Notes under the pieces: model-generated
The model's input: only the letters and a program-made list of their open reading frames with translations
The model's database searches: none
Told to the model about the DNA's origin: nothing
Source of the DNA: Deuterostichococcus epilithicus
Taxonomy: Eukaryota > Chlorophyta > Trebouxiophyceae > Prasiolales > Stichococcaceae
Direction: 5' to 3'
Assembly (NCBI GenBank): GCA_033439295.1
Contig: JAVTLE010000004.1
Coordinates: forward strand, 1,674,012-1,738,011
DNA length: 64,000 bases
Shown: piece after piece, positions 2,938-62,002 of the stretch
Numbering within the stretch: the first letter of the stretch is position 1
Layout: every line of letters begins with the position of its first letter
Made by a program: the position numbers and the translations under genes

Positions 2938-5900
2938 TCATCGAAATCGATCGCGGCCGGCCAGCAGCGGCGTGCACTTGCGCCTCAATTCCGGCGGCAG
3001 CTTCGCGTCCAGCGCCTCCAGGATAGCCTTCTCGCTGGTCCTGCAGCAGGTGAACCGCGAGACATCGATCACTCCCTTGTTCACCGTCATGCATCTGATG
3101 CAAAGTTCCCGATCGAGCATTGTCACACCCGGCAGGGCAAGCGGGGCGCCGCACCTGGTGGAGAAGTGGATAAGCAGCAATGCCTCGTTCTCAGCAAAGG
3201 CGTCAGCGTGCGACGCCAGCTCGTCCAGGTGTGTGTGGCCCCTGCAGCAGCAGAAAGTGCGACCCTCAGCAGTACGTCTTTTGGGTAACAATCAACTTGC
3301 GCCTCTCAAATAATGGGCAGCTGTCACCTGCAACGCATCAGGGGTACTTGCACGCAGCGCCGCCCAAACCTGCCGAGCTTCTTTACTTCACACGTAACAC
3401 TTTAGTGTCCAGCAGAAGGTCGAACGAGTAGGCGACTTACTCGCCTCACGAGCATGCAACACTGACACTGACACCGTCATTTACAGATAGAGGTACCCTC
3501 CAGCCAGCGCCGCCCAGACTCGGCGAGGCCCCGCACTAGATCACACGACACTTCGCAGGGAAATGGTATCATCAACAAGGGGAGCAGCTCACTTTTCCCG
3601 TGCGCCGGCAATGCTGACGCAATTGTCGACGAAGGTGACCTCCAGTATCAGGAGCCGCGCACGCAATGCATCCGCCGCTGAAGGCTCCTGTATATAAGCC
3701 AGCGTGGTGTCCCCCGTGAACGCCACCTCCGGCGTCTCAATTGTCTCCGTCACCTCCTGCGCAACGGCAGGAAAGGTCGCAGAGTTACCGGTGTCCACAT
3801 TTCTTTCCAGAACTTTGCAGGACCTCACTCTGATACTGTCATCCTTGCAAGGTTCCGGGGTTTGCTTTGAGGAGGGACCGAGGCGGCGGCACCCCTGATG
3901 CTGCAGGGTGGGCAGCTGAAGGACGTCGGTTGGCCTGCATTGAGCGGGCGGGCATGGCGGCTGTGTGGCGGGACTGGAGGTTCTGGGTCAAGCTACGACA
4001 ACAACACCTAGCAGAACAACAGAAGCTGGCCCCAGAGGCTGATGTCCTGTGCAACAAGCTGCACAGCGGGGAGACCGCCGCAGCGGCTGCCACAAGGTGG
4101 CCAGCACTGCTGTGGGCCGCCAAGATGGTGACTGCGCAGCCTCGCAGCGGCTGTGCAGCTGCTCTGATGCGCTTGGCCACAGCCGCAGACAGGCACAGCG
4201 GCACCCCCAAGGCAAGCGGCGCCTTCCCGGCGCGTGGCAGCCATGCGCAGCTCCTTTGGAAGCTGTTTCTCGTCTCACACCACTGGCAGCGCGCACCGCC
4301 TTGATGCATGGCGTCCGGCCGGCCCACCGGGTGCGTCAACTTCATCTTACAGACGGGGGTTATAGGTCGTTTACTGCAGGATCCTTGTGGGGTCCCACCT
4401 CGCCGGCGGCGCGCAGCGCCTTGATGTCGGCGCCCGGGCGGCCGGCCAGGTGCGGCCTGAGCTTGCGCCTGACGCTGGACAGGACGTAGCCCTGGGAGGC
4501 CACCCTGTGGTGCGTCCGGAAGGGTCGGACTACTGCGTCCCTGAGCCACGCCTCGCCGCCCACCTGGGCTGCAGCGGGGTGCCGAGTTTGCATGGTTTTG
4601 GGCTGCGGCAGGGCGCCGGGTTTGCAGGGTGCTAGGCCGCAGCAGCAACAGCACCGAGGCTGCAGGGTTGTGGCGCGGGCTGCAGCGGGACCCCGAGTCT
4701 GCAGGGGGTGTCTTGCACAGGAGGCGTCGCCGCGGAGGCGCCCGACTCGCCGAGCGGCGGCAGGGCACCCTCTGGCTGGCGGCTTGTCGATGAGGCGCGC
4801 CTGCTGAGCGCTCGCCCGTCCCTCTGCGATGGCTGTGACATGTGTGCAAATGCGGATCCCAGCGCAGGGCCGGCAAGCTGGCTGTCGCACTGCAGGGCAC
4901 TGCACCTCCAGCACGCGGACATGAGCCAGACCAAGCCTCCCCAGATGCTGCTGATGCAAGGAAGCCCTTCGATCACAAGGACAAGCGCACGTCCAGGGCG
5001 TGCGGTCAGCGCGGCGTGTCGTGGCCGGCGAGTGCTGCTGCACAGCAACGGGGATCTCTGACCGTTCTCCAGCGCCCCACAATGCAGATGTGCACATTCG
5101 GCAGCCCAGTGCCAGGAGAGGTCCACAATACAGATGTGCACAGTCTTGCAGCCCAGTGCTAAGAGGGGTCGCACGTCCAGGGGGCGCAGCCGGCACAGCA
5201 TGTCGTGGCCGGCGACCGCGCCGGCGGCGTCAAGCAGCGCCTGCGCCGGCGCCACGCACGCCGGCGGCAGAAACACCTGCGGCGCCGCCATGCCCAGCAT
5301 GTTCCTGCGGCAAGAGGAACAGGAACCACAGCGTCGATCAGCGCCTGCATACCGGTGCCTCTGGGGTCCCACGCCGATGCAATGCACACCGGCGGCAAGA
5401 ACACCCACAGCGCCACCATCCCTAGAGTCTGCCTGCGGCGGGCCAGGCTTGTCACGTCGGCGTCTGCACCAGGGCCTGGCAGTCGAGACACTTTCCTCCG
5501 GGCTAAGCGCCGCAATCCTCCTTGCGCCTGCCTCGGAGACAGGCTGCTGCACTCGTAGAGCTTGCAGCCGTCCAAGTGTGAGCCTGCTGATCAAGCCAGC
5601 AGGATGCCATGCCGCCACATTCGCCACACACCCGTTGCTGGCTTCCGCCGCCGGGCAATCATTTGAGGCCGATGCGGAAGTACGATCGGAAAACCGACAG
5701 TAGAAGTGTCTCGATCATATTCGAGCAGCTGGTGGCCATGTAGGCGGGCGGGCCGCCAGGGTCGTCCAGGTGAGGAAGGGTTTGATTCAAAGGACATGCG
5801 GAACACCCACAAGCGAACCCTGGGTCACCTGGCGGCGACGTAGGAGGGCAGGCCGCCGATGTGGTCCAGGTGGCCGTGGCTTATGAAGGCGGTGTGCTGC

Positions 5901-6361
5901 AGGCATGCCCTGTGGGGGCAGCGCCCCAAGTCGAAAGCGACCCGCCTGAACGGCACGGTTCTTGGTTTTAGGGCAAGGCCCTTTGAACAGTCCGGGACAG
6001 GTGCAGCCAGCGCGGCGTGCTGCAGGCACATGCGGTGCAGGGTTAAGGGTTTAGGGTTTCACAAGACGCCTGCCTGCACTTTGCGCCGGGAAGGGTGCAT
6101 GCATGATATGAGGTTCTGGGCGCTGATGACCAGCCTGTCGATCAGGGCTACAGGGCGGCTCTTGCAGGAGGAGGCAACGTCTGCCGATGGCGAGCCAGAT
6201 GTCGCCAAACCTTTGCGCCAGACCTCCCATGAGCGCATTGTGGGGAGCACCCACCAGCGGGGCAGCATGATGCAGGTCTCCAGCCCCGCGACGGAGCAGC
6301 CCTCCAGCTCGATACCCGCCACAGTCATCTGCCCCTCCCGGGGCGGCTTCCGCGGCTGCAT
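2938..6361 (-). CDS. TRZ1: ribonuclease Z, short form (tRNA 3' processing)
   Basis: tRNase Z endonucleolytically removes the 3' trailer of pre-tRNAs. Seven exons (6361-6255, 5945-5829, 5304-5175, 4563-4399, 3756-3593, 3241-3155, 3040-2938) join in frame to 290 residues, close to the roughly 280 of plant TRZ1. The metallo-beta-lactamase signature SHGHLDHIGG lies near residues 57-66. Other Zn ligands and family motifs are AFTGDT (Asp near 189), GHTHL (His near 230) and LLIHFSTR near 253. LDVGGEAWL and VASQGYVL match the plant short form. The start could be the Met at 6361 or the in-frame Met at 6328. No clear transit peptide is seen in this model, though an open frame lies just upstream. Its stop is 98 bp from the convergent H2A stem-loop. 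Introns 2, 3 and 4 contain decayed or tandem copies of exon-edge sequence (see repeats). Confidence 0.93.
4281..4335 (-). repeat. exon echo: copy of RNase Z exon 4 end
   Basis: This intron segment resembles the last ~55 bp of exon 4 (4399-4455): GCGCACCGCCTTGATG here against GCGCAGCGCCTTGATG in the exon (plus strand), followed by similar GGCC-rich sequence. It lies on the donor side, about 65 bp past the true exon end. Confidence 0.7.
5078..5170 (-). repeat. two ~46-bp tandem units in an RNase Z intron
   Basis: Two imperfect units share CACAAT-CAGATGTGCACA and GCAGCCCAGTGC. The second runs up to the donor of exon 3, so this is another donor-side local duplication. Confidence 0.75.
5371..5440 (-). 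repeat. exon echo: copy of RNase Z exon 3 start
   Basis: In the minus frame this reads MVALWVFLPPVCIASAW, against MAAPQVFLPPACVAPAQ in the true exon at 5304. A CGCAG acceptor-like border precedes it. It lies upstream of the true acceptor, inside intron 2. Confidence 0.85.
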
Positions 6362-7263
6362 CGGATTCAGTGTCGAGTGTCAGCGTGCGCGCTAATTACT
6401 TGATGTCCGCTGCCATCCAGCTGCCCCTCCCGCGATGGCTGCTGCGGCCAGGCGGCGTGCAAACTGTGTTGCAGCAGCACGCGTCGCCAATAATGCTCTT
6501 GCTTATTTTCAAGGCAAGAGAGACTAGCCGGGCACCAGCGGGGAGTTCTGCATGTTCAGGTGGGCCCTCAGCTGTCGCCAAGCATGGATGCGCAGCCTGC
6601 TTTCTTGCCTGGTCATCTTGCAAGGGGCGAGCGCCCTCAGTAACACTCGCTGTCGCTGCCATCAGCGCCGCCGTGCGCGGCAGCGTGCCGCTGGATGCTG
6701 CGGCTGGAGGACCGTCGACACGTGGGGCAGCCATCACAGAACGGGAAGGACTCTTCCTAGCTCTGCAACCAGCTCCCTTCAGGGCGGGGACAGCTGCCAG
6801 CAACCTGCCCGCACGCGCTGGCGGGCTGGCAGCCACCGATCGGCAAGCAAGTAGCATGCGGTGGCTTCACATTTCAGAGCAGATATCAATCAAATCAACT
6901 CGATAAACGTTGTGGCTTGGTGAAACGCAGCGCGAATGGAAACCGGTTCAAGATTGCAGGATCGGGATCCAAGCTCGTGATCTAGAGGAGGCAGACGCAG
7001 GGCAAGCTGCATAAGTCGTGTTACCGACTCCGTCGGACTTCGGGAACGCAGCAGCGTGCGGTACGATGCTCGCGCTGCGAAGTGCGCTCATCACTTTGAG
7101 CAGGGTGGAGGTGGGCCGTCGCACAATTCTCTGGTGGCTTGAATGTTTCTGAGCCCTGTTTTGCCAATGCGGTGACAAGGCAGATTGCACTCGAGTGGGT
7201 ACTCATTGCTCTGCCGTCAGCTGTTCAACGTAAAAGTAGGGCACAGTACTGTTCAGTTGCGTT
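6362..7263. other. spacer between RNase Z and glycosyltransferase
   Basis: About 0.9 kb. A minus-strand frame (6857-6396) starts with a basic, Ala/Arg-rich stretch resembling a plastid transit peptide. I could not splice it in frame onto RNase Z exon 1, so I do not annotate it as coding. Otherwise it should hold the RNase Z promoter and the glycosyltransferase 3' region. Confidence 0.35.
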
Positions 7264-14600: not shown

Positions 14601-17600
14601 CGCCTCATCGTCGGCTCCAAGCAGGACTGCTACGGCGCGCTGCGGGAGGTGGAGCGGCTCTGGCCCTCAGTGCCCGGGCGCTTCAAGGTGCGCGGGCGCT
14701 GCAGGATCCTTGCCTGATCCTTGTTGTCTGATCCTTTTTGCACTTGGTCAATGTCGTCAGGGTTGCGACCCCTGAAACGGGGCGCTCTTTGCTGGAGGAG
14801 GCGGCCGTGTTTCGCTGCGGGAGGTGGGGCGCCTGTGGCCCCCGCCGCCAGGGAGCCTAATGTGTGGGGGCTTGCATGAAAGCTTGTTCTGTTGCTGTAC
14901 CTTTCTGCCTGGCCATTCCTCTGCTTGACATGCCCACCCCGCGCGCGCGCGGGTGAGGGCAGCAGCACACCTTTGCATCACCGCTGTCGAGCTCGTCCAC
15001 CTCGTGGATGGTATGAGACCCCCTCTGCATATCGGCCGTCAACATGGGGATGCAGCTGCCGCAGCATGTGGGCACGCCGGTCAATGAAGGCTGCAGGGGG
15101 CCTAGCATGGCGTCTCACGGGAGCCCTGGCAGCCCCGCTGGTCGGCCTCCACCAGCTCCCCTGCACTTGCGTGAGCGGGCGGCGTGTCTGCTGCAGCTGC
15201 CCCATGCCTGCTGCAGCTTCCGTGCCGTGCCCTGTGTGAATCGGTGCTGCTGGCAGCGCCGCCCTGTCCCTCCGGCTGTACCATCCGCTCAGCAGTACGG
15301 CTCAGCGCTCGCCGGATTTGGCAACTCCAATTTGGACCCTGCTCCGAAAGCCACTGCTGAACCCTGCTGTGCTGCCGCTGCCCACAGGACTATGTGCGCA
15401 CGCCCAAGGCCAACGGGTACCAGAGTCTCCACACGGTGGTGACGGGCCCCGACGGGCTGCCCATCGAGGTGCAGATCCGCACCGCCAAGATGCACTACAT
15501 CGCCGAGTACGGCGTCGCGGCGCACTGGCGCTACAAGGAGGCGCTGGGCGATGCGGCGGCAGGCGGCGGCGGCGGCGGCCACACCGACCAGCTCATCGGG
15601 TGCGTGTGCGTGTGTGCTGGGATCCCGCCAGCCGGACGTGTCGCCTAGAGAGCTCGCGATGCCATTCGTTCGGGCAGGCCAGCAGGCTGCGCTGCTGTGT
15701 CCTTGCAATGCAGGCCGCCATCACGCCGGCACCGAGAGCCACCGTCCGATTGCCTTCCTGCGCTGCCTCCCTCAAGCTGACATGGTGTCAACACGTGTAG
15801 ACATCAGACTGGGACTGCCTCCTGAACAGGTGGGCGCGCTGGCTGATCACCTGGCAGCTGGAGCTCGAGGACGGCAAGCAGCGGCCGCGGGGGTCGCCGC
15901 CGCGGGACACCTCCCTCGCGTCGCTGTTCGGCGCGCGTGCGCCGTCAGTCGCCCNGCCGCGCAGGGGCTCGGCGGCCGGCGGCGACGGGGCGGAGGCGGC
16001 GGCGGGCGGCCCCGCCGGCGGCTGCACCTTCCCGGAGCACCACCCGGACTGCAGGTGCGGCGGCGGTTCCCAGGAGTGCAGGCCGTCCGATGCTTTGCAC
16101 GTGGGGCCCTTGCTGGGTGCACAGCAACACAGGGAAGAGCAAGCCAGCTGATGCCGCGGCTGCAAGCCAGGTCTGCATCAGTTGTGTCTCGCACCGCCCT
16201 GTGTTGAAAGATACATGCGGCCCCGTGGTGGTCTTACGGACTGGTGGGCAGGAACCGGCCAGGTTTCCGTACCTGACCAGGCGCCCCACCAGTCTTTTCA
16301 GCTGCAGTGCACCTGGTCATCTGGACGTCCACATTGAGCCCGCTTCCGGCGACCGCCTTTTTGCGCCGCTGTCGCAGGTTCGCCAAGTTCGTGCACAGCG
16401 AGCGCTTCGCGCCGCGCGCGGCGCAAGACCACCTGGCGTCGCCAGTCTACATCGTGCTGCTCAACGCCACCAAGGTGGCGGCAGCAGTGGCGGCGACGGG
16501 AAGCAGGGCGGCGCCCGCCGCCGCGGGGCCTGCGGAGCAGGCCGCGGCGCAGGCGGCTGCCACCCTGGAGCGGTCGATCAGCGGCGCGTTTGACGCGCCC
16601 GGCGCGGCGCCGGCGGCCTCCTCGGCTCCTGCGACGCGGCCGCTCGAGCCCGTCATCGAGACGGTGCGTGGCTGCTCACTCTCCTCAGCGTGCGCACGCA
16701 TGATGGCTTGCTAGCATTGTGGAGTCGGGCAGCGAGTGCTTGGGGACATGCTGTGATTGTTGCGTCCCTGTGAATGGTCGGTCGCACTTGTTAGGCTCGT
16801 TCCTCTCAGCTGGCGCTGCGGCAGCTGGTCAGGGAAGTAGTTGTGAATGTGACTGCCCTTGCCCAGGTGGGGGCCGGCACCACAGCAACCGGCGTGCTGG
16901 CGGCGGCGAGCCTCGCCGCAGCGCTGCGCTTCAGCCCACAGACTCGTTTGCTATCCATGTTATCACTACCTGCGCAGGTGCCGGCCGGTACGACGGTTGC
17001 AGCCAAGCTGGTAGACATGGGCCCGGCAGCAGTCGAGGCATTGTCACCACAGCGTGTTGCACTCGCAACACCCTTGTTATCCTGCTGTTCTCTCAGCCTG
17101 TTCCTCCTCCTGCGCAGGTGCCGGCCGGCACGACGGTTGCTGCCCTGCTGGCGGCCGCGGGCCTGAAAGCAAGCGAGGCGCGGGTGCTGGTCAACCACGA
17201 GGTGGTCACCGATGGGCAGCTGCTGCTGCACCACGGCGACAAGGTGTGGGCGCCGCCCGTGGTCTTGTGACAAGCTGTGCAACCACCATCTCAACACGGT
17301 TTTCAGGCAGCAGCAGCGGCAGCAGCAGCAGCTGGCAGATCTATCAATCAACTGGATGATGGGTTGGGATCATCCAGTCAGCTGACGTATCTTCCACCTT
17401 CTGCTGCTTCCAGATATGCAATTTCAGGCGGCAGCTCAGCCACGACCTATAATTTTCGTGATCAATTTGTCCAGCCTGGCAAGACACTTTGATGCCTTGT
17501 GCCCCGCCAACATTGCTGTCTGTTGCCGCTCCTCACCCATGGTGACTCAACGAATTACTCTGCAGGTGGAGATGTTTGACGCCGACCCGGCCGAGGCCCC

Positions 17601-22417: not shown

Positions 22418-22459
<42 letters not shown>

Positions 22460-41200: not shown

Positions 41201-43679
41201 TAGCTGCAGTGGCTGCAGCAGTGCTCAGCGGCCCTGTGTGCAGCAAGCAGTGCAGTGGAACTCCACGCCCTGGAGCGACGCGCCTGCAGCTCCGTGCTGG
41301 CACATCTTTGGTCCGGCCCAATCCGCAGCCTACGCCGCCTCCGGGGAATTGCTGCCGGTGACGAGCAGCGCCAGCGCCAGCATCAGAACCAGCGGGGTGC
41401 GGATGCGCCGGGGCCCTGGTGGTCAGTGATGCAGTGGACTCGCGCGTGTCTTGCAGGGCTGCCATGGCCTGCTGCCTCCAACGCGTCGTGGCAACAGGCG
41501 CGCCGCCTTGACATCAGCAGCTTTCCGCATGCCGGAGGACTCAGTGCCTGAACAGCTTTTAGGGTTTAGGGGCTGGCCGGTCCTTGTTGCCGCAGGGCAT
41601 CGGTGTCGTGCTGCATGTGGGAGCTGGCGGCGGAAGACGTTTTGCGCATGAAGACGCTGCAGCCGGGCATCCTGGACGACCTGGCGGCGCACTTTGTGCA
41701 CCGGGCGGAACGCTCGCTGCGCGCCATGGGGCCGCACGACCTGTGAGTTGTGACTCTTCTTCGTCTTTTTCCGTTCCCAGGAGACCATGACTGGGCCTGG
41801 GCCTTCGTCGAACGGCTCGCGTTTCTGCACCTGGAACAGTGAATCCCTGTGCATTATGGACCCCTGCGAGCTATGATTATCAAGCACCCCTCAGCAGCTT
41901 GTCAGGCCTGTTGAAAGAGGGCTTAACGAGCCGGACAGCATCCTATGCGCATGCTCGTTAAGCTCTCTTTCAGCAAGGGCCCCCCTTCAGTTCCTTCAGT
42001 TCTCCGCCCCACGCACGTTCAGGGCCCCTGTCCTGCCGGGTCTCGCTTTGCAGTCTTGTCCGGAACGCATTTCATCCGCCGCTCGTTGAGCGGCGGGAGG
42101 CGCTGCGGCGCATCCCTCTCTGCAACTCCCGACAGGCTGTCTGTCGGCCCGCGCACACCTGGCAGCGCGAGTCTTGAAGTGCAGCTCTGGTGGCGCAAAC
42201 ATGCAGGCAAGACAGCCCGCAGGACGTGAGTATATGTAGTGTCCGCCACCAATATGAGCATGACACCTGCAGGCAGCGCCTGTGCCCTGGGGCCGCCAGC
42301 CCAGAGGACGTGCTCGCGCGCCTGCGGCGGGAGCTGCGTCCACCTGACGACACGCCCGTACGATTTCTGTGCACGCAACCGTGTGAATGCAAGCTCGTGT
42401 TCGAGTTCCTTAAACGCACAGCCTGCTGTTTGCTCGATGAGCCGAGATCGCGTGTTTAGGGTTCAGGGCGTCCGCTCCCTGGTGTTCCGACTACCCCAGT
42501 GCTTGCGGCACACATCGCACTGCAGCTCTGTGCTGAGCCAAGCTGCAACGTCACACCAGAGGAAGGCCCTCCCTCCGCCAGCCAGGCTGCCATCACCACT
42601 GCATTGCCACATCACCCTTGCAACCAGGGCACGACCGCGGGCGTCTGAAGCGCTGCGCTCGCCGCTGCTGGGGACCGAAGCCGCAAGCGCTCCACCTCGA
42701 ACGTGTCGTGCTGCCTGGCGCTCGCAGGAAGAGGCGGCGGCGGAAGCGGTAGCGGCGCTGGGGAATGTGGATGCAGAGGCGATGGGCGGCCGGCGGGACG
42801 TCACGATGCCGAAGCTGGCGAAATTGCGGTCGTTCCTGCAAACGCCCCGCAGCGCACATTCGCCGCGCACAGTGTCGCGCTCGCTGTTCAGCAGTGAGTT
42901 CTTTGGATGCTTCGCACCTGGAGCCACCTTGTGGCGGAGCGCAAAGCACCTGCTGCGACACTGCGTCGGCCGGCGGCGGCGGCATAGCACCGTCACAGCT
43001 CTGAGAGTGTCAGCGGCTGCGGCGTCGGTCTTCGAACTGTGCATATCGACATCACCCAGCCCTCGCATTGAGGTCGTGGTGCTGCAGGACATCATGCGAG
43101 CAGAATGTAATTATATTCAAGAGGCAAAATGCTGTGTCCCCCAGGCGCTCAACCCAGTGATGGGCCGAGTTGTCGACTCGCTGTTATTATGTGCAGGCGT
43201 GGCGGCCAAGCTCAGGCCCAAATCCGGCGGACGCACCGGCGGCAGAGTGCCGCTCGCAGCCCGCACCGGCGCTGACGCCGCGCCGATGCCGGCGCCGAGC
43301 GGGGCGTACAGCGCCGGACCCGGCGGTGACAGCGGCAGTGCCAAGCTGGCGCGGTTTGGTGCTCTGCAGCACTTGGACACTCACGCCCCGGTGGGCATAC
43401 TCTGGCGTAGGTTGGGAATCGATTGGCCGTCTTGCTTCTAGGTGGCCTGAGGGGGAGCAACGCTGAGGCAGTTGATGACCCCCTATGATTGGGGATGCGA
43501 GTCATCCGCTAAGCGTCTGACGCTTCAAACTGGCTCGACGCCTGGGCGCACGTGCACAGGCGGACCCAGAGCTCATGAGCCTGGCGGAGGCGGCCGCCTG
43601 GACGTGGCACGCCGGCGGCGATGCCGACGCTCGCGCCGCGGCGACGGCAGCTGAGGGTGCTGCCGTGATCCAGAAGTAG
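35220..43679 (+). CDS. voltage-gated K+ channel with cyclic-nucleotide-binding domain, copy B
   Basis: Paralogue of channel A with the same domain order, roughly 870-890 residues in 20 exons: 35220-35535, 35853-36006, 36458-36530, 36664-36760, 37149-37315, 37526-37621, 37847-38024, 38815-38970, 39199-39248, 39543-39604, 39916-39998, 40260-40363, 40579-40699, 41001-41124, about 41242-41350, 41596-41742, 42273-42357, 42728-42893, 43197-43390, 43560-43679. S1 YPTALLPILIVLVVALM|DCTYSAFFIPITTAF; S4 LRCFRLLRLIRVTRV; filter TTIGYGDITP; S6 VLFFGFLIGAIGEGIQ; binding domain PGHDLCRQGARGDSIWFLTE and VLGESALLAAL. It lacks the long Gly/Ser N-terminus and the extended tail of copy A. Exon 1 seems to end at a GC donor (CAG|GCGCGT), whereas the S1 intron, GC in copy A, is GT here. 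The S2-S3 coding region is one exon here and two in A. A large palindrome lies in the intron before the pore exon. Confidence 0.9.
38542..38709. repeat. 168-bp near-perfect palindrome in channel B intron
   Basis: Arms of about 81 bp (38542-38622 and 38629-38709) are roughly 85-90% complementary around a spacer of about six bases. Perfect blocks include TCTGATGCACAGCCCTG, CAGGGAAGCTGTTCCTTG and TTGTACGAGGAT. The transcript of this intron (38025-38814) would fold into a long hairpin. It could be an intronic small-RNA precursor, a foldback element, or a local inverted duplication. I saw no target-site duplication. Confidence 0.95.
41905..41978. repeat. intronic hairpin, ~27-bp arms, channel B
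   Basis: TTGAAAGAGGGCTTAACGAG (41911 on) pairs with GCTCGTTAAGCTCTCTTTCA (41953 on) with one internal mismatch and a 21-base loop; weaker pairing extends outward. It lies in the intron between exons 41742 and 42273. Confidence 0.85.
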
Positions 43680-43696
43680 TTCGCAACGCTCTCACA

Positions 43697-44886: not shown

Positions 44887-44894
44887 ATCACAGC

Positions 44895-44899
44895 TGTAA
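44895..44899 (+). terminator. TGTAA poly(A)-type signal
   Basis: TGTAA is the established chlorophyte polyadenylation signal. Here it lies 9 nt after the stop at 44886, which is close but supports a transcript end in this direction. Confidence 0.4.
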
Positions 44900-47990: not shown

Positions 47991-48128
47991 TACGTATGTG
48001 GTGGTCGGAGTCAGCGACACTGCGGCAGTAGCCGGGATGAGCAAGGTGTGGGTGGTGGGCTTCGTTCAGGATGCAGAAGATCTTTTTCTCACCAGGGGCG
48101 ACCCCTCAGGTCTGAGATGCTACGTGCA

Positions 48129-48159
48129 CACCCACATGTCGTGTTGCGACATGTGGGTG
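48129..48159. repeat. perfect 13-bp hairpin
   Basis: CACCCACATGTCG and its exact complement flank the loop TGTTG. Intergenic, about 240 bp downstream of the cysteine synthase fusion stop (on its strand). Could be part of a transcript end or a small foldback. Confidence 0.8.
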
Positions 48160-48394
48160 CTATAAGGGCAAGACTTCGTAGTTGGCTCTGTGACCAATAT
48201 TGGAGAGTTGAGCAGGTTACTCTAGATTGATTTGAGTGGATTGTCCAAAAGATAGAGTCATTGGTAAGTTGATCAGGATCCACAACCATGATCAATTGAA
48301 GGCATGCTCCATGCACATTTTGATCTGGTCATTGACTTGCTTGGCCACTAATAGAGTCGCACAGCGCCCAGAGACAAGCTGCCGCGTCACTGCA

Positions 48395-51300
48395 TCATGC
48401 CGTCTGCGCGGCTGCGTGGACACTTGCGGCGGCGACGCGCTGCAGGAAGTCCCTCACTAGCTCCTCTGCTTCCGCCGTCGTGCCGCTGCGCTCCAGCTCG
48501 GTGCCTGCGGCAGAGCAGCCCAGTCGTCGCTGCTGTCTTCTGGCGCCCTCATGTAAGTGCCTTGTCAAGTGGGTAAGATGCCGCTGAGCATCGGTGCCAC
48601 CCAATTATCTGCTCTCTCCCCTCCCGCGCAGCTGCCTCCGGCATCCCGGTCAGGTAGTAGGTTCGACCACACGCCATGGCTGCGCCTCTCTTTGACAATG
48701 ATGCCAAGGGCCGGGCCGCGCTGCCACCACCACATGCACAGAATTGACATCAGACTAATGTTCAGAGTTTAGCTGCTCACCCAGGCGCTCGCCGGCGCCA
48801 TCCGCCGTCCAGTGCACCAGCGTCGGGACGCCGGTCACCCGCAGCCGTGGGTCCGTCCTGAAGGGGTGGTCCTGGCTCTTCCATGTCGGCCGGTCCCCCA
48901 CCAGCACCTGTCGAAGCAGGATCCAGAACGACTCTGGGGAGCTCACGAGTGCGAGGCGGAGCGGCCCGGAAAGATCGGCCCAGAGAGAGCGCGAGCGCTG
49001 TCTCCGACGACCCTCCGGCTGCTGCTCTCGAGCCCGCAGCGGTGGCCTGCGCTTGGAGTGCTGGCATCTAGGCGGTCGGCGCAGCAAGTCGGGCGGGTGC
49101 GACTGCGTTTCTGGGCCGTATCCATCAGGTGTCAGCTGCGTGCGCGGCCGGTGCGGCAACAGCACAGCGAGTGCCGTTGAGCTACCCCTGTAGATTCTTG
49201 CACACAGCCTGGCAAGCTGGAGCAGGGACCAACAGGGTTACATGTCACAGCTGTGTAATCCCCCTGGTTGGAGCCCACACCTCCAGCAGGGTGCCTCCGG
49301 CGTCCGCCACCGCTTTGCGCACCGCCGGCAGCGTGCGTCGCACATCAGGGCACCACGCCTCGCCTGCGGCCGCGCATCAAACTTCAGTAACAGTTGACAC
49401 AGTCCATCACCGCCGGCGAGCAGGCGCGCAGCACGCACCACTCATCCGGCAGACACGACGGCGGTTCAGAGGGGCTGCTCCAGCCTGTCACTCCGGATGT
49501 GCTGCTGCTGCTGTCTTTCTATTCTCTCTTTCCGCCTTGCACGCAATCTTGCAGCACCGAGGACCCACCTGTCTCGGGGTCATTGCTGGCGCGGAACAGC
49601 ACGGCGTGCGGCGCTGGGAAGAAAAGCAGCCGCGCGACGGCCGACGGAAACTCAGCCACAGTGCAGGGGCCTGGGTCGCCCGCCGCCGCCGCCTCCGAGA
49701 ACACGCCTGTCGAAAGGTACCTGCGGGCAGAAGCTTGTTAAACCATCGATGTCTGAACATGAGCGCAGCTGAAGGACAAAGGACAGGACGGCAAAGGGCT
49801 GGACATGCCTGGCGACAGGTATCTCTGGGACAGCAGCATCACACTTGAGCTGTCATTGGTGCCGGACCTAAGCATGAGCTCGCTGGGTGCACGCATGCGG
49901 CGGCACCCCCCCAATTCAGCAGCTGCGCCCCTCGGCTGCGGTCCTTTGGCAAACCCTGCTGGGAAGGCCCCAGCTCGAACCATGCATGCGCGCAATTTGT
50001 GGTGTGCAGCACACAAACGTACTCTCTCTGCAGAAATTTGGGGGCACACAGTGAAGATGCAGGCCGCACACCTGTCGCCGCGGTCGCACACGATGGCGAC
50101 GATGGTCGCGTTCTCCACCGTGTCCGACAGCCGCAGCGCCGCGCTGATGGCGCCGCCCGAGGACACGCCCGCAAAGATGCCTGCGCCGCCAGCGGAGCCG
50201 AGCTGTGTCCGTAGCCTCGGCGAGTGTAGCAACTGGTTTTCCTCTACTGGAATCCTCTGCTAGGACACAGCCCTCTATACGGCTGCTTCACCCGGCAGGG
50301 TCTGTATCCGGAAGGGTCTGCGGTGCCGCCTCCGTCTGCAGGGTTTGTGTATTATGTAGTCTAACGAGACTTGCTTCAGGTGAAACACCCGCAGCCCGGC
50401 GCCGGCGCCCTCGCAGCCCGCCAGCTCGCCTGGACGTGCGTACAGTGAACCTCGCGGCTGCTCCCAGGCTTTCCGTTGCACCGGCTGCCGATCTCCCATG
50501 CGCGCCAGGGGCCGCGTCCTCTCCTCTGCTCCGGACAGCCTCAGGTTGTTAGATGATCATCCCATCCATCATGTTTTGGAAGCTTTCCTAGATCTTACCT
50601 TCCACGCGCGCCAGCGAGCGCATTGTCTCCTCCGCCTCGGCCTGCGAGATCTCCATGACCTGGTCCACACGCTGCTCCTCAAAGATGCTGGGCAGGTACT
50701 CCTTCGGCCACCGCCGAATGCCTGCAGCACCAAAATCAATATCTCTTCACTGTCTCGCTGCTGTACTCATGCACTGAGCGGATTGCATGTTGCTGCCACC
50801 GGCTGCTCCTCGAAGATGCTGAGTAGGTACTCTTTTGGCCACCGCCGGATGTCTGCGCCGTGCACCGGCGCAGGCATCCGGCGAAGTAGGCACTCTTCTC
50901 CTTTGCTTGCAATGGAGAAGAGTGTTTACAAAGATCTGGCCGACCCGCTGCTCCTCGAAGATGCTGGCCAAACATTCCTGCAGCCACCGCCGGATGTCTG
51001 CGACACGGAGACAATCTGCAGGCCTGGACACCACACCACTGCAGCGGTGCACAGCGGGAGAGCCCGCAGGGGAGATCGGTTTGCCTGGTGGCATCTGCCG
51101 CATGAGCGGCATCGCCACCCGCAGGCCCAGGGTGCCACTGCCCACGCCAGTGGGGCGGCCCAAACCTGCAGCTGCTCTGCTAGCGACAGTGTGATAACCC
51201 AGACACAAAACCTGGCGCTGGGCGAGTGCCTCCGGGCGACAGATTCCATGACGGAGTTGTGAGCAGTCTGGACACGCTTGATATGGGCGTGCCCTTTGAC

Positions 51301-53748
51301 GGCTTGCAATCCACGCCACAGTGGACACAAGATTCCATTGGGCACTGCCGCTGAGGAGCCGCCCCCTGACGGCCGCAGGCCCATGGTGACTCGCCGTGTC
51401 GACGGCTGCACTGCAGGAGCCGAGGCCCCCTGCAGGGGCCAGGTCTGGTGGGGTGCTTACTTGTCGCGGGTTTAGAAATATGCACCTGCAATGGAGGCGC
51501 CCTCCGACGGCTGCAGGCCCACGATGCGGACGCCGGGATTTTGGCTCTTCAAAAACCGCGAGACGCCCATGATGGTCCCGGTTGTTCCCATGCTGCTCAC
51601 GAAGTGCGTCACCCGGCCGCGCGTCTGGTCCCAGATCTCGGGGCCTGCGGGGGCCAGTGCCTGCCTTGATGAGGGGAGCTGCCAGACTCCTTGCCGCAAA
51701 GGCTGCATGCTGCTGGAGGAGCGCCGCTCGCGACTGCGGGATCGTCCGAGGTGTCCGGTGTCGTGCATCGAGGGCACTGCTGGTCGGGCGCACAAGGCTG
51801 CACACCTAGTCCCTGCTGTGCAATGGTGGATTGGGCATGCAGGCTGAGCCGCTGTGCGCCCAAACGTTAGGCATTAAAAAGAGTGCTGACGAGGGTGTGG
51901 TCGCGCTTGCACATGACCAAAGTCGGGTGAACAACACGCAGGCGTCGCCAATGGCTACGCAGCCAGCAGCAGGCTCGACTGTGAGGTTGACCAGCATATT
52001 ATGGAAACGGTAAGGCCCTCGAGACCGTGCCGAAGCTGTGCGCACCGGTGCCGTTGAAGTGCGCAAGCGGGTTGTCGGCGTTACCGAACTGGTCCAGGAC
52101 CACGCCCTCCCCGCGTGCAGCCATCTCGCCCGCCAGGTCCCGTGCGAGCTCCATCTTGCCCTGAGATGAAGATGAAAGACATGAGGTCTCGCCTATAAGT
52201 GACCCTGTTCAGCTGCGGCTGCGCAATGCCGTCTTGCCCGCCAGGTCCTGCGCTGGCTCCATCTTGCATCCTGCAGAATTTAGGCAATCACCCATCGTGC
52301 TTCGATGTAGCTGTCTGGTACCATGGATCTTACACCTAACTAAACGAGGCGAGTGATGATATTTCGTCAAATCTCGTGCAGCTCTCGCCTCGGAGCAGTG
52401 GCGCGCTGCGTGGGCAGTTCCATGCCCATCAGGTCGGCTGTAGCCGCATAGGCGCTAGGCCAGGAATTAAGGAGCAGCCCTGTGGCGCATGGTCGACGGC
52501 ATGCAGCAGGTTTGTCACGGAAGCGGAGCATGACGCACCGCAGGGACGCTGATGAGCTCGGCGCCATACGCTGCCATCGCTGCCCGCCGTTCCTCGCTCA
52601 TGTTTGCTGGCCTGCAGACACAACAAATTGTGGTTCTGAAACATAAACATTGGTCAGTTTGCCTAGGTCGTGGTTGGCTGCCCATGCAACGTCAAGATGG
52701 TTTGAATGACCAAAGTAACCGGCAGAGGCTCCAGGTACGCAAGAGCATCTGCCCGCAATCAGGCTGCCTGGTGGAAGCGCAGGTGTGCGACAATGTGCTC
52801 GCACATTATCAGCTTGATGGGGTAGCCCTTGATGGCGGCCGCCATGGCGAGCGCGATGCCGGTGTTGCCGCTGGTCGCCTCGATCAGCGTGTCGCCCGGT
52901 TTTAAAGCGCCCCGCTTCTCTGCCTCGCTGATCATGCTGAGCGCCGGCCTGCAATCGAGTGTGAACATGCATGTGCATGCGCTCTGAAGCTGATCGGCAC
53001 TCGGACGGAAAACCCTAAACACAGACATCGGCTTCAAGAAGCCACGCGCACATCCGATGAGATGTAGTCCCTTTGATGTGAAGTCAAGCTGCAGCAGCAT
53101 GCGCCTCTGTCGCACGAGCTCTGCCGTTGCATGGCTTGCCTAACTACCCGGCCATGCAATGGCTAGGACATGTCCATGCATGCAGAATTTGCAACAGTCT
53201 CGCCTGTCCTTGACGGAGCCTGCTGGGTTGTCGCCTTCCAGCTTCGCCAGGATAACATTTGATGTCTTGCCAGGCAGACGCTGCAGCCGCACCAGCGGCG
53301 TCCGGCCAACCTGTGTCACGTGGCGGTCGCATGAGGCGTCAGTGGGTGGCGACCGGGGATGAATCACCGCCTGTGGCGGCTATATGAGTGGTCATCGACG
53401 AGCCGTGCCAGAAGCTCGGTGTTGTGTGCGTGTGGATTGCGTCGGCAGCATGCTACAAGCGTGTGCTGTGGCCTCCTTTGCCGGCACGGGATGCAGTCGG
53501 AGCATCGTGGGCGTTTCCAGTCATACCTGATGCTCGATCGTGGGATATTCATCATTGCTGGGCACTGTGGGCTGTGCCGGGGTTGTCCCATGTACAGCTG
53601 CGCCATTGCCAGACTCTGCCAGCACCGAGCCTGCCACCGGCGCGTGCGCCACCATGGTGAGGAATTGCAACGCTTGGCGCCTGTCCGGGGACGCCTGGGA
53701 CCTGACAGACCGAGGCGGACTGGGGCGGATGTGGGCAAGGTTTAGCAT
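48395..53748 (-). CDS. CYSM-TRX: cysteine synthase B fused to a TRP14-like thioredoxin domain
   Basis: Twelve exons (53748-53527, 53310-53204, 52948-52805, 52611-52539, 52160-52046, 51644-51486, 50721-50599, 50180-50072, 49717-49569, 49363-49281, 48907-48781, 48504-48395) join with consistent phase to 506 residues. Residues 1-74 look like a transit peptide. Residues 75-360 are a bacterial-type CysM: GSVKDR (PLP Lys near 108), TSGNTG (135-140), [56 protein letters not shown]. CysM enzymes use O-acetylserine with sulfide or thiosulfate, the latter giving S-sulfocysteine. Residues about 369-506 match TXNDC17/TRP14: [18 protein letters not shown] (404-408), [27 protein letters not shown]. The active site is WCPDV, not WCPDC. 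The junction lies within exon 49717-49569. Intron 2 has a GC donor (CAG|GCGAGA). I infer plastid location and a two-step sulfur role. Confidence 0.9.
50790..51006 (-). repeat. two exon echoes of cysteine synthase exon 7 (IRRW exon)
   Basis: Upstream of the true exon (50721) lie two open copies. At 50872-50790: [18 protein letters not shown]. At 51006-50920: [20 protein letters not shown]. The true exon reads [20 protein letters not shown]. Each copy starts after a CAG acceptor with ACATCCGG, and the distal one ends near a GTAAAC donor. They may be alternative exons or decaying duplicates. Confidence 0.9.
51357..51395 (-). repeat. exon echo: cysteine synthase exon 6 end
   Basis: CCCTGACGGCCGCAGGCCCA (plus strand) resembles CCCTCCGACGGCTGCAGGCCC within exon 6 near its end (51497-51531). 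Donor-side, about 100 bp into the intron. Confidence 0.7.
52230..52268 (-). repeat. exon echo: cysteine synthase exon 5 start
   Basis: GCAAGATGGAGCCAGCGCAG followed by GACCTGGCGGGCAAGA (minus strand) copies GCAAGATGGAGCTCGCACGG-GACCTGGCGGGCGAGA at the exon start (52160). A CAG-containing border precedes it; acceptor-side. Confidence 0.85.
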
Positions 53749-57700: not shown

Positions 57701-60700
57701 GGTGCGAGACCGGGCCAGTCCGGGCTCGATCAGGTTGCCGAAGGCAGGCAGGTGCCGCTCTGTCTGCTGGAACCACCCAAAGCTTCGCCCCCCTGGTCCT
57801 GCCCATGCGCAGACCGCCCATTGCGGGTCCACCCCATTGCATGGCGGCATGACTCATCCCACCCCATTGCATGGCGGCATGACTCATCCCAACGAATCGC
57901 CGTGCACTGTGTGCCATAAGGTGTTTCATTCTCCTTTTGCCCATGTCGCCTGGTGTCCCAGCGCAGCGACCCACCTGCTGCGGTTTGATGTCCAGCAGGT
58001 TGTGGCCCTGGATGAACTCCCGCCGCCGCTTCCGCTCCGTCAGCCGCTCATTGTAGATGGCCACCAGCGTCAGCTTGGCTGCGAGCTCCGCCTGCGTGTC
58101 CGACTCCCTGCGTGGCAACGAGAGGGTGGTGTTACGAGACCCGCCTTCTCGTGGGATCCTGTGCGGCTGGCCGCCAGCGCCAGCTTGGCTGCGGTTTCCG
58201 CCTGGCTGTCTCCCTGCGCATTGACACCACGTGAGAGCTGCGAACGAGTTGGCTGTAAAGCTGAGTCCGAGAGCCACTCGTCGTGAAGGACCGCCAGCGT
58301 CAGCCTGGTCGTGATGATCGCCTGGTTCTGACGCCCTGCGCAGCTGTCGAGCGGATTGGCGGTCAAGACATGTGGTGTAGTGCCACCAGTGCCAGCTGGC
58401 GCCCACTCTCGACGGTGATGCCCGACTCCCCCGCACGGCGGAGAGTAGTTGTCTTGAGTTCGACATGAGTTGCTGTGAGAGCATGGTCAAGCGGCCTAAT
58501 GCCACAACAGACGCAGCCGGCACAGGCAGCGAAGCTGGCTGCCGCGGCCCCGAGTGACAAGTGACAATGGGTCGCTTTCAATTTAGGGTCACCCGAAATA
58601 CAGGGTCGCCAACAGTAGCAGGCCTTGTGCCACGGCATCGTACGGAGGATCACACTCCAGAGTAAAACATCTTAGATTCCTTAGGTAGGTCAGGTTTGTG
58701 TCGTCTGCATAATCACCTGAACTCCAAGTCCGCCAGCAGCGCCTCCGCCTCGGCGTCATACTCTGGCTCGAACTCCAGGCGCTTCGCATGGAACCCCGTC
58801 AGGTCCGGCGCCACGCCCGCCTGCGGAGACATCGATCTTTGGTCGGGAACAAAGTTGGAAGCAGCTGGGTATGCCAGCCTGATAAGGCGAGCCCAAGTGT
58901 TTCGGCGTTGTAGCCCATCAGGTCCGGCCCGCCATGTCTGCCCACAGAGCACATCTGTTGTCAGACGTGTGCTCGAGTAACATGAGGGAGGCAAGAGCTC
59001 CGATGGAAGATCAGAAGGTTGCACGACACCGTGTCGCTCTGTCAGCTGTCCAGCTGCTCCGCATTAGGCTTTAAGCCTGTTGGGCCGGCCCGGCACCGCC
59101 CATCTCGGAAACCCAAGGGAAACCTGGAACTGTCGATTCTCACTCCAACTGGGTGGCTGTTGGGGCCTGTCCCGTCCAGAGGAACCACACCCCACAACGA
59201 GGCTTGCTTCCCACCAGGCGCCATGCAGCGGTTAGGCCGACCAGGAGACGCATGTCAGTGCTGGGCCCAGCCAGCCTGCGCAGCGAGATGGAGCAGGGCA
59301 AAGCGTCTCGGGATGCTGGCACGCCGACCGTACGTCAAAGCAAATTGGGTTCCCGAAATGCTTCTGTGTGTCATGCAGCCAAAGCCTGTCAAAGTGGGCA
59401 CAAGCCATCCACCTTGGACTTGGCCTTGGAGCTGCCACCGCCCGGCACGCCCTTCCCGCCGGCTCCCAAGTTTGCCCCGCTGCCGCCGCCGCCGCCCATG
59501 CGCAGGCCGCCGAGCTCCGCGTGCGAAGCCTTGGGGCTGCCGCCCGCCGCCGCCGCCCGTCCGAGCCTGCACCCGACTTGGACATTGCCGCCGAGCCGCC
59601 GCCGCGTGCAGAGGACTTTGCGGCTCGGCCGCCAGCAGCACCCTCACCGCCATTGCCGCCATCGCCGCCGTGGGCCGCCGTCCCTTCGCCCAGGGTGCCC
59701 TGCTCCCTGCCAGCTGTGCGGCACCGCTTCGCTGCACGACTGTCGGTCTGGTCATCTGCAGGGGCACAGCTGCGGCGCGTCGGTCGGCTGCCAGCTGCCC
59801 ACGCCCGCGCTGCCGGCACATCTCTGCCATCTCTGCCACAGGCAAGGGTTTCGGCAAGATCAAGCAGCCGAGCGATGCATCACGCTCGTGTCACGTGCCT
59901 GCTGCTGGATGGAGAGGTGCGCCAGCGGCGCTCGCAGCCGCCGGCGCCGCCGCCGATCGGTGCGCCGCTGCTGACGCGCCCTCGGCCGCGGCGCTGGCAC
60001 CCTCTGCGGCGCCCAACTGCGCTGTTGCATTCGCCCCTGCCTCAGACGGTGCGGCCGCCTCCATCTTTGCCAGCACTGCCGCCGCCTGCGCGGGTGTGTT
60101 TGCGCCGTGCGGCTCGTGTTTTGGCGGCTTCCGCAAGTCCACAGCGGCCTGCAAGTCATTCATGCAGCTGAGAGTCAGCCAGACCTGGAGGCGACCACTG
60201 GCACGACGCGGTGCAGCAGCGCCAGAGCTCCAAAGCACTGGCAGCCAGCACGCCGTTCTGCCATTGCTCTTGCGCGTCCCAAGCAGCGACGCATGTGCAC
60301 ACCACGCAGCTTGGCGCCATGCGAAACATTCGCAGAGGTGGTGTCAAGAGGGGGCCATCAGGTGAAGCCACCGCTGCGAATTGACCGCCACCAGGCGTGC
60401 GTCAGACGCCTCACCTGTGGGACCTGCGCTGCAGCCTCCTGCTTCACGCCGGCAGCCGCACCATCACCGGTTGGCTGCATGGCGCCTGCCCCCGCGCCTC
60501 CGCCTGCCGCCGCTGCCGCTGCCGCATCAGCGCCCAGGTCGCCTGCCTCGTCCCCAGCCTCTGCCATCTCTGCATCCACTGCAGGCTGGAGCAACCCCCT
60601 GGGCTCCGCCCCCGCGGCCGCCCCCTCTGCGGCCAATGGCCTGCCACCGGCATCCACCGCCGATTGGGCAGGCTCCGCCTTGACGTCGGCGCCCGCTGAG

Positions 60701-62002
60701 CCATCCACCGCTGACGCGTCCGCTGCTGCCCTGCCCTCTGTCAGCACGTCTGCTGCCGCCGCGGCGCCCTGGTTGTTGGCAACAGGCGCGCTGGCGGCCG
60801 CGAGGGAGGCCGAGGGGGAGTGCGGCTCCCGGGAGGCCTGCCGTGCGCGCTGACGTTCCCGCATGACCTCCTGCGGGTCGATCTGCGGCGGGGCAGCACA
60901 ACAGGGTTTGCAGATGTCAAATTAGAGTCGAACAGTCGGATGAATATGTCCGGCAGGAGCTATGATGAAACAATGACAAACCTCTGAAGACCTGCAGCTG
61001 GACTGAGCACATACACCACTGCAGCTGCTGCCGCATGCCAAGCTCGCCGAGTGCATGCGAGTCCGCAGGATCTGTGACGTCGCACCCCGTCCATCTCGGG
61101 GGCGGGCGTGGGCTCTGGGAAGGCGGGCGATGCGAGGTAGATGCGCTCGTAGTGGGCAGCGCAGGCCGACGGGTCGCGGTTGACGTGCTCGCCGACCGCG
61201 GCCCAGTTGCCCAGGCCGTACATGTCGAGCGCCTCCAGCAGCAGCAGCTCCTCGTCCGCCTGCAAGGTCAGAGCGGTTCAGGAAACAGCAGCGCCGGTGA
61301 CAGGAGATGCTCATGTTGGAGGACATAAACCTGCTGCAGCTGCTTGGTTGCCGAGGCCGTACATATAGACGTGGGCATGGCAAGCCGCACTGGAATCCAG
61401 GTGCCCTTGTTACACCCATCGAGTTTTCAGTATGTGAAGTGGCCAAGGCAGCTGCCACACCCAGACACCCACGATTTGGAATATTTGAGCAGCGGAGGGC
61501 ATGCCCTTGCATGGCAGGCGCTCGGTGGAACGACAGACGCACCCCCCAGTCGGGGTGGTTGAGCGGGAAGGACATCTCCTCCACCACCCTGTAGGCGTGG
61601 TGCGCCTTGTGCGGTGTGACCTCTGCGCCCGCGGCGAAGCAGCCGAGGCACAGGTCGAAGTCGCGGCACACGGCGCACTTGATGCGCACGCACGCCGAGA
61701 TGTCGCGCTGGCAGTAGTTGCAGTGGTACAGCGCCCTGCAGGTTCCCCACACAGAAACTTGCGGGCTGGGAAGCGGCAGCCCGGATCAGTGGTCTTGTGT
61801 TGACGCACTGGACGGCGTGCCCACCAGAGCTTCTGCAGTTGCTCGCGGGTGCTTGCGAATGGTACGGTTTCGTGACCGCGAAGTTTCACGATGAGGGTGA
61901 CACTTACCGCTTGGTGCCATCGCGCCGTGTCAGAAGGCTGTCCTGCGCCGCGCGCCTCCGCTTCAACCTGATCAGGCCGGGGACTTCTGAAGTCAGCTTC
62001 AT
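54761..62002 (-). CDS. ADA2: transcriptional adaptor ADA2 (SAGA/ADA complex)
   Basis: Nuclear adaptor that couples the GCN5 histone acetyltransferase to activators. Exons include 62002-61908, 61735-61543, 61259-61086, 60882-60415, from 60148, ending 59413, 58820-58717, 58107-57975, 57149-57009, 56635-56528, 56112-55906 and 55096-54761. Order: ZZ zinc finger (LYHCNYCQRDIS, CAVCRDFDLCLGCF, HKAHHAYRVV); SANT/Myb domain (ADEELLLLEALDMYGLGNWA, ACAAHYERIY); Ala-rich linker; ADA-box regions (PDLTGFHAKRLEFEPEYDAE, NERLTERKRRREFI, ERRWTAAEKEVHARARVFGR); C-terminal SWIRM domain (LDITNLPGLEAL, RELAAGSRLLPPQLLNMEAG, FFRLEGARTLRLLELL). The Met at 62002 is the first in the frame that runs into the ZZ finger through an ideal GTAAGT donor. 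The exon ending 55906 uses a GCAAGC donor. Boundaries in the low-complexity region 60100-59413 are unresolved. Introns carry six or more exon echoes. Confidence 0.93.
55806..55862 (-). repeat. exon echo: ADA2 exon ending LDITNLPGLEALTSK
   Basis: GGCTGGACATGTCGAATTTG ... CTCGAGGCGCTGATGTCACA then G|GCAT mirrors the exon end CAGCTGGACATCACGAAC ... CTCGAGGCGCTCACGTCAAA then G|GCAAGC. Even the GC at the donor is copied. Donor-side. Confidence 0.9.
57831..57890. repeat. perfect 30-bp tandem duplication in ADA2 intron
   Basis: Two identical 30-bp units, each starting ACCCCATTGCATGGCGGCAT, lie back to back in the intron after exon 58107-57975. Zero divergence makes this a very recent local duplication. 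Confidence 0.95.
58160..58432 (-). repeat. three exon echoes of one ADA2 exon start
   Basis: The true exon (58107) starts ESDTQAELAAKLTLVAIYNE. The intron upstream holds three copies with AG-like borders: 58222-58160 (DSQAETAAKLALAAS), 58335-58272 (NQAIITTRLTLAVLHDEW) and 58432-58370 (ESGITVESGRQLALVALHH). They diverge more or less independently, as expected of successive duplications. Confidence 0.9.
58890..58945 (-). repeat. exon echo: ADA2 exon starting AGVAPDLTGFHAK
   Basis: The minus strand reads AGPDLMGYNAETLGLA against VAPDLTGFHAKRLEFE in the true exon (58820). Acceptor-side, about 80 bp upstream. Confidence 0.8.
61336..61378 (-). repeat. exon echo: ADA2 SANT exon
   Basis: ATGTACGGCCTCGGCAAC here copies ATGTACGGCCTGGGCAAC in the SANT exon (about 61203-61225). 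Acceptor-side, about 80 bp upstream of the exon start at 61259. Confidence 0.75.

What the first reader, a model, noticed from the sequence alone, without database searches (positions are those of the whole stretch)
2938..62002. Systematic exon echoes: introns carry decayed copies of adjacent exon edges
In every well-resolved multi-exon gene here (RNase Z, glycosyltransferase, RSH, channel A, cysteine synthase fusion, ADA2) introns contain 40-80 bp segments that copy the neighbouring exon border. Copies of exon starts lie upstream of the acceptor; copies of exon ends lie downstream of the donor, usually with the splice dinucleotide. I count about 20 in 60 kb. This fits repeated tandem duplication across exon-intron junctions followed by decay of the inner copy, a possible engine of intron growth and of intron gain. 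It is neither the introner-element pattern (dispersed identical introns) nor exon shuffling.
Basis: partly seen in the sequence, partly recalled or inferred. Interest (0 to 1): 0.85.

Follow-up and report, generated by a model that had tools for sequence, protein, structure and literature searches.

The report
Introns carry decayed exon-edge copies
In this probably algal genome, many long introns hold worn-out copies of the edge of the neighbouring exon, about 120 bases away, which looks like an old wave of short local duplications across splice junctions and may help show how introns lengthen.

Summary
With a home-made gene model (64 genes, 437 introns, window plus 230 kb), junction-anchored same-strand copies of exon edges in the adjacent intron number 57; four non-adjacent control introns per intron gave none. 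42 of 47 single-step copies lie 91-150 bp apart; 48 of 874 junction sides carry one, mostly in long introns (median 482 vs 244 bp). Inverted copies are rare. The inner copy decays: codon pattern near neutral; with paralogue channel B as outgroup, 25 changes on the copy, 11 on the exon. Channel A has 8 copies on 36 sides, B none on 34. Best reading: an old, now quiet burst of roughly 90-150 bp duplications spanning splice junctions, probably lengthening introns. Intron gain is not shown. Against plain tandem duplication: the intron half of the unit is recognisable in only 10 of 36 copies, fewer than simulated unless introns decay about twice as fast as the copy. With that decay, the lack of intron-internal duplications needs no targeting; without it, copying confined to exon edges is a live alternative.

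The parts
24744..24798 (-). Source of copy: end of channel A exon 24753-24912 plus 9 bp of donor
24644..24698 (-). Copy of that exon end inside intron 24081-24752, 100 bp downstream, 93% identical, keeps GTGAGT; homology stops sharply
24882..24931 (-). Source: start of exon 24753-24912 plus 19 bp of acceptor
24985..25034 (-). Copy of that exon start, 103 bp upstream in intron 24913-25175, 92%; intron-side homology visible
23679..23708 (-). Donor-side copy of 23798-23827 (channel A), spacing 119
29553..29592 (-). Donor-side copy of 29685-29724 (channel A), spacing 132
26710..26754 (-). Donor-side copy of 26950-26994 (channel A), spacing 240; weaker copy at 26804-26841, spacing 136
27117..27171 (-). 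Acceptor-side copy of 27000-27054 (channel A), spacing 117, weak (71%)
25725..25778 (-). Copy of the start of channel A exon 25488-25615 (source 25586-25639), spacing 139
5372..5439 (-). Acceptor-side copy of 5244-5311 (RNase Z-like gene), spacing 128, 75%
5726..5772 (-). Donor-side copy of 5826-5872 (RNase Z-like gene), spacing 100; same intron 5305-5828 as the previous copy
4272..4306 (-). Donor-side copy of 4392-4426 (RNase Z-like gene), spacing 120
4986..5031 (-). Copy of 5170-5215 (inside RNase Z-like exon 5096-5304, not at its very edge), spacing 184
6418..6448 (-). Acceptor-side copy of 6326-6356 (intron 6356-7377 between the glycosyltransferase and RNase Z-like parts of my gene model), spacing 92
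16969..17039 (+). RSH gene: copy of exon start 17109-17179 (TGS region) incl. acceptor, spacing 140; an older copy at 16860-16913, spacing 251
14813..14856 (+). RSH gene: donor-side copy of 14638-14681, spacing 175
50796..50856 (-). Cysteine synthase gene: acceptor-side copy of 50665-50725, spacing 131, 85%
50933..51006 (-). Second copy of the same exon start, spacing 276; with 50796 a triple family
51355..51388 (-). Donor-side copy of 51493-51526 in the same intron (50722-51485), spacing 138
52228..52267 (-). Acceptor-side copy of 52120-52159 (cysteine synthase gene), spacing 108
58168..58210 (-). ADA2: acceptor-side copy of 58058-58100, spacing 110
23236..34032 (-). Channel A: 8 exon-edge copies (score >=29) on 36 junction sides compared with channel B
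35220..43664 (+). Channel B: divergent paralogue with matching exons and no copy (best score 22) on 34 junction sides; natural control

Best explanation
Short direct duplications, mostly 91-150 bp from copy to copy, repeatedly arose across exon-intron junctions. The outer copy of the splice site stayed in use, so the protein was unchanged and the intron became longer; the inner exon copy was then free to decay as intron sequence. Most events are old (roughly 0.12 or more substitutions per site by simulation), they recur in the same introns, and the process now looks quiet. Shown: adjacency, orientation, narrow spacing, preference for long introns, more change on the inner copy, origin after the channel A/B split. 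Inferred: that the event is a tandem duplication, for example repair of offset nicks or staggered breaks; that the outer sites are the ones spliced; that introns decay about twice as fast as the exon copies; and that the events lengthened the introns. The size limit near nucleosome length is unexplained.
For: Adjacent-only, direct-only copies. Spacing 91-150 in 42 of 47 single-step copies, with further copies at 236-276 that look like two steps. Spacing (mean 118, s.d. 22) varies less than if exon part and spacer were independent (s.d. 28; permutation p = 0.003), as for a unit of set length. Whole-unit homology including the intron half in the clearest cases, e.g. 24882/24985, L018 1694/1799, L008 4677/4800. 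Spacing not biased to multiples of three (17, 16, 14). Near-neutral decay: third-position share of mismatches 0.40, 114 nonsynonymous to 60 synonymous codon changes in 31 copies; 25 of 36 polarisable changes on the copy (p = 0.03). Both ends of the same intron carry copies in 8 introns, 1.3 expected if sides were independent; one of the 8 (L006 141-269) is a single repeat seen from both ends. Old events plus doubled intron decay reproduce the observed scores, the missing intron half (28%) and the absence of intron-internal pairs.
Against: Intron-side similarity exceeds background in only 10 of 36 copies, against 58-90% in neutral tandem-duplication simulations with small indels; it fits only if introns decay about twice as fast as assumed, for which I have no independent evidence, or less well with heavy-tailed indels (40%), which blur the spacing. 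Four of the most similar donor-side copies lack a homologous spacer: 24644 (93%), L003 9894 (95%) and L018 3418 (100%, 23 bp) stop within about 10 bp past the donor, L010 550 (91%) 14 bp short of the predicted exon end. No independent intron-internal duplication of 90-150 bp was found in 135 kb of intron; with ordinary decay 17-28 would be expected beside 28 exon-intron pairs. Of 8 copy-bearing introns in channel A only 5 are longer than in channel B. Spacing is less regular than a fixed unit would give (correlation of exon part and spacer -0.39; -0.60 if spacing were independent of exon part).
Confidence: 0.5

Rival explanations
1. Edge-limited copying: only the exon edge plus its splice signal (20-70 bp) is copied into the intron about 100-145 bp away, e.g. 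as a templated insertion during break repair, and not a whole tandem unit.
For: Homology reaches no more than 10 bp into the intron in 27 of 36 copies (16 of 17 donor-side, 11 of 19 acceptor-side); partial-copy simulations give 89-94%, tandem-duplication simulations 35-75% at equal decay. The most similar donor-side copies have unrelated spacers. No matching intron-internal duplications.
Against: The overall 27 of 36 (75%) is also reached by tandem-duplication simulations with many indels, and 94-96% with faster intron decay. Spacing is tighter than exon part and spacer allow if independent. Several acceptor-side copies do have intron-side homology over 40-70 bp. Few inverted copies, which templated insertion usually also gives (recalled).
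Confidence: 0.22
2. Blind tandem duplication everywhere in introns; it is seen only at exon edges because the exon is the one copy that does not decay. A variant of the best explanation without any preference for junctions.
For: With ages of 0.12-0.4 and doubled intron decay, simulated intron-intron pairs are never detected (0 of 600) while 18% of exon-intron pairs are, so the observed absence is expected. Intron-internal duplications exist (L009 4019/4102, d 83, 89%; L016 3821/3887, d 66).
Against: With ordinary decay or with ages from zero, 16-28 intron-intron pairs at 90-150 bp are expected and none independent was found: of 6 pairs, 3 are copy-to-copy and the others have spacings 66, 83 and 197.
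Confidence: 0.2
3. The copies are functional: alternative splice sites or mini-exons kept by selection at a set distance.
For: AG or GT kept in 25 of 55 copies, background about 6%; an AG lies at or within 5 bp before the four most similar donor-side copies.
Against: Codon-position pattern and excess change on the copy fit relaxed constraint; the farther copy is the more diverged in the cysteine synthase triple family. Kept dinucleotides are also expected simply because they were copied.
Confidence: 0.05
4. [quoted passage not shown]
For: Spacing equals intron length in two gene models (16978-17117, 140 bp; L018 4945-5068, 124 bp).
Against: Copy-bearing introns have median length 482 bp against mean spacing 118; many copies include intron-side splice signal. 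Channel B has the introns that match the 8 copy-bearing introns of channel A, without copies, so those introns predate the copies.
Confidence: 0.03

Closest known systems
Tandem duplication across an intron-exon boundary in a potato RdRp gene (Ma, Lan and Niu 2016, PMC4974935; passages read)
   Same: A short direct duplication includes the 3' side of an intron and the start of the next exon, like the acceptor-side copies here.
   Different: One event, in which a new intron arose with a cryptic donor. Here about 5% of junction sides carry copies, at donors as well as acceptors, the inner exon copy decays, and no new intron is shown.
[quoted passage not shown] review PMC3443670, passages read)
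   Same: Local direct duplication involving exon sequence and splice signals.
   Different: In that model the intron is the stretch between the two AGGT copies, made of duplicated exon sequence; here, in channel A, the introns are older than the copies, and introns are on the whole several times longer than the spacing.
Introners (PMC9860276, passages read)
   Same: Intron change on a genomic scale.
   Different: Introners are highly similar introns at many loci, some families with 3-9 bp target duplications; the two stretches searched here matched only themselves.
Direct repeats near splice sites (Rogers and Bendich 2025, PMC11782384; abstract and outline read, plus a term search)
   Same: Direct repeats near intron borders.
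   Different: Those are 4-30 bp, mean 11.4, and read as insertion footprints; here copies are mostly 20-70 bp at a spacing of 91-150 bp with the inner one decaying.
Small tandem duplications from fill-in of staggered breaks (PMC8355091, passages read)
   Same: A mechanism that yields short direct tandem duplications.
   Different: Laboratory breaks, no relation to splice junctions; that paper calls small duplications the most common form of insertions under 100 bp in the human genome, whereas 39 of 47 here are 100 bp or more apart.

Membership tests
Tandem-genomic-duplication intron gain (Rogers model) | Duplication period equals the length of the new intron | tested here: not met
   Median intron with copy 482 bp, spacing mostly 91-150; equality in two doubtful models
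Tandem-genomic-duplication intron gain (Rogers model) | Intron absent before the duplication | tested here: not met
   Tested for channel A only: channel B has introns that correspond to all 8 copy-bearing introns, without copies
Tandem duplication spanning a splice junction | Direct, adjacent copies covering exon edge and splice signal | tested here: met
   splice dinucleotide kept in 25 of 55
Tandem duplication spanning a splice junction | Homology over the full unit, intron half included | tested here: inconclusive
   10 of 36 above background, below simulated expectation unless introns decay about twice as fast
Introner elements | Near-identical intron sequence at many loci | tested here: not met
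   Window 3000-6000 and one 86-bp spacer match only themselves in the genome; other introns not searched
Mutually exclusive or tandem exons | Whole exon duplicated, both copies under coding constraint | tested here: not met
   Copies are exon edges; near-neutral substitution pattern
Break-repair tandem duplication (staggered ends) | Dependence on end-joining and fill-in enzymes | not testable with these tools
   Needs mutation-accumulation or knock-out lines

The most novel reading that the evidence does not exclude
The copying respects splice junctions: a process tied to exon edges, perhaps through chromatin or splicing-linked DNA breaks, deposits a copy of the exon edge plus its splice signal at a set distance of roughly 90-150 bp inside the neighbouring intron, and so builds long introns stepwise from their own exon borders.
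Probability: 0.2. Interest if true: 0.85.

Novelty: new variant of a known kind. Interest (0 to 1): 0.6.

Why it matters
How introns grow is usually told through transposons and random insertion (recalled). Here exon edges serve as lasting reference copies, so short duplications beside introns can be counted, sized and, where a paralogue helps, polarised. If the 91-150 bp spacing and any junction bias hold genome-wide, they make a mechanism of intron lengthening, and a possible route to new splice sites, directly testable. I found no report of a systematic pattern of this kind in nine full-text searches, of which I saw the listings and passages of six papers, in a library that lacks most subscription journals.

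Tried and rejected
Chance or composition: rejected by reverse-complement, shuffled, non-adjacent and other-gene controls. Protein repeats and simple repeats: 48 low-complexity pairs dropped and 11 exon-exon, 3 intergenic and 1 exon-intergenic pairs set aside before counting 39 exon-intron pairs; two of the 11 (L003 9767/9894 and window 16860/17111) are copies that the gene model took as exon, and the exon-intergenic one (25586/25725) is a copy beside an exon that the model left as a first exon. Mean match excess by shift was too diluted to be useful alone, though it is positive at 100-150 for both junction types and not inside introns. A tolerant gapped scoring was too permissive (256 of 745 at score 90, 227 for the reverse-complement control; 40 against 2 at score 140), so that list was used only for its strongest rows. 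First gene-model run over-split exons and was replaced; searches use the model and later that. Constant-rate tandem duplication is rejected by the lack of young copies (score above 40: 1 of 36, 42% in simulation). Filler origin: one spacer searched in the genome matched only itself. The idea that copies look like mini-exons (AG just before) held for the four most similar donor-side copies but not in general. Species identification by rRNA failed (tool error, not repeated); that this is a green alga is my recall from base composition and gene content, not a result.
Full report
What was checked. The window is part of contig C4 of a 46.8-Mb genome in 21 contigs. I first looked for local repeats without any annotation. 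In the window, direct repeats at score 20 or more pile up at 100-200 bp spacing (15), with none at 50-100, 3 at 200-300 and 2 from 300 to 3000; two inverted repeats lie within 3 kb. In 20 further 10-kb stretches from 16 contigs the inverted count is 10, nine of them in the 2-3 kb bin, against a pile of direct repeats below 150 bp. Some of those stretches are dominated by protein repeats and a CAG array, which I filtered in later counts.

Gene models. No RNA data or annotated relative was available, so I wrote a small hidden Markov gene finder and trained it on the DNA itself. It settled on a coherent splice code (CAG|GTG.G. donors, (C/T)GCAG|G acceptors), 60 genes and 397 introns in 264 kb, and 64 genes and 459 introns in 294 kb, of which the 437 of at least 60 bp were used. 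Pfam supports six of the seven window proteins that I submitted: histone H2B (histone fold), a glycosyltransferase 2 with a sub-threshold metallo-beta-lactamase match (one fused model), RelA/SpoT, an ion channel, a PALP enzyme with a TXNDC17-like domain, and ADA2; the C-terminal piece of channel A had no match. In L018 the exons match glutamate-cysteine ligase as I recall it from plants.

Exon edges matched their own adjacent intron at score 32 or more in 44 of 745 cases; controls gave 0 of 745 (reverse complement), 0 of 745 (shuffled), 1 of 2235 (other genes) and 1 of 639 (same gene, non-adjacent). Anchoring at the junction sharpened this to 57 copies at score 14 or more against none in four control introns per intron. 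After merging and limiting to spacings of 60-330 there are 55 distinct copies on 48 of 874 junction sides in 40 of 437 introns. The splice dinucleotide survives in 25 of 55.

Shape. Copies of exon ends lie downstream of the donor, copies of exon starts upstream of the acceptor. Of 47 copies at up to 185 bp, 42 lie at 91-150 bp. Spacings near 236-276 look like two steps: window 50721, window 17118, L008 4697, L004 and L014 show three related units each. Spacing varies less than if exon part and spacer were independent (s.d. 22 against 28, p = 0.003), though not as little as a fixed unit would. Copies sit in long introns: 24 of 89 in the top length fifth, 2 of 173 in the bottom two; 8 introns have copies at both ends where 1.3 are expected, one of the 8 being a single repeat seen twice. 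Clustering by gene is weak once intron length is allowed for (p = 0.05).

Decay. Among 31 strong copies the mismatches fall 69/63/89 on codon positions, with 114 nonsynonymous and 60 synonymous codon changes and one stop, near what I estimate for a neutral inner copy beside a constrained exon. The window holds an informative control: ion channels A (minus strand, 34032-23236) and B (plus strand, 35220-43664) are divergent paralogues with matching exons, about 81% identical in five exons compared. A has 8 copies at score 29 or more on 36 junction sides, B none on 34 with a best score of 22 (Fisher p = 0.005). All 8 copies resemble the A exon more than the B exon. Where B allows polarising, 25 changes lie on the copy and 11 on the exon (p = 0.03). 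So the copies most likely arose in the A lineage after the split, and the inner copy is the one that mostly changed. In the 8 copy-bearing introns A is longer than B in 5 and shorter in 3, so growth by this route is likely but not uniform.

What does not fit plain tandem duplication. If a unit of about 120 bp was duplicated whole, the intron half should also be similar. It is in the clearest cases (24882/24985, L018 1694/1799, L008 4677/4800), but only 10 of 36 copies exceed background there. Neutral simulations of old tandem duplications give 58-78% with small indels, 40% with heavy-tailed indels (which then spread the spacing), and 28% if introns decay twice as fast as the copy. A model in which only the exon edge is copied gives 7-8%. 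The data lie between. Four of the most similar donor-side copies have unrelated spacers. Independent intron-internal duplications of 90-150 bp are absent in 135 kb of intron, against 28 exon-intron pairs of that spacing. With ordinary decay 17-28 would be expected; with old ages and doubled intron decay none would. So one assumption, fast intron decay, removes both difficulties and any need for junction targeting; without it, copying confined to exon edges is the better fit. An exon-to-copy gene conversion on older duplications is a further possibility that I could not test.

Age. There is no wealth of young, long copies: 1 of 36 scores above 40 against 42% for a constant rate of tandem duplication and 27% for constant-rate partial copies. 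The process seems to have slowed.

Literature. The nearest published case that I found is a single duplication across an intron-exon boundary in potato that made a new intron (PMC4974935, passages). Nine searches of the held library showed no systematic report; subscription papers are mostly missing from it.

Verdict. What remains surprising is the narrow spacing and the possible restriction to exon edges.

Noticed in passing
window 23236-34032 (-) and 35220-43664 (+): Divergently placed ion-channel paralogues with matching exon structure; only one of the two carries exon-edge copies.
   Followed up: yes
window 30620-30814: A 195-bp intron in channel A that is absent from channel B (exon 37149-37315 is continuous); gain in A or loss in B not decided.
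   Followed up: partly
window, both strands: 16 of 62 minus-strand introns but 1 of 28 plus-strand introns carry a copy (p = 0.02); elsewhere both strands have them. Could be gene effects or replication direction.
   Followed up: partly
window 1950-2790 (+): Histone H2A-like sequence beside an H2B gene (683-1232, -); by eye and recall its frame seems to break near 2700, so it may be a pseudogene or hold a sequence error.
   Followed up: no
window 48395-52968 (-): Cysteine synthase-like (PALP) enzyme fused in the model to a TXNDC17-like thioredoxin domain.
   Followed up: no
window 57829-57891: Perfect 30-bp tandem repeat, two copies.
   Followed up: no
L009 4019-4181: Intron-internal tandem duplication, 83-bp unit, homologous over 80 bp at 89%: a plain case that differs from the exon-edge copies.
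   Followed up: partly
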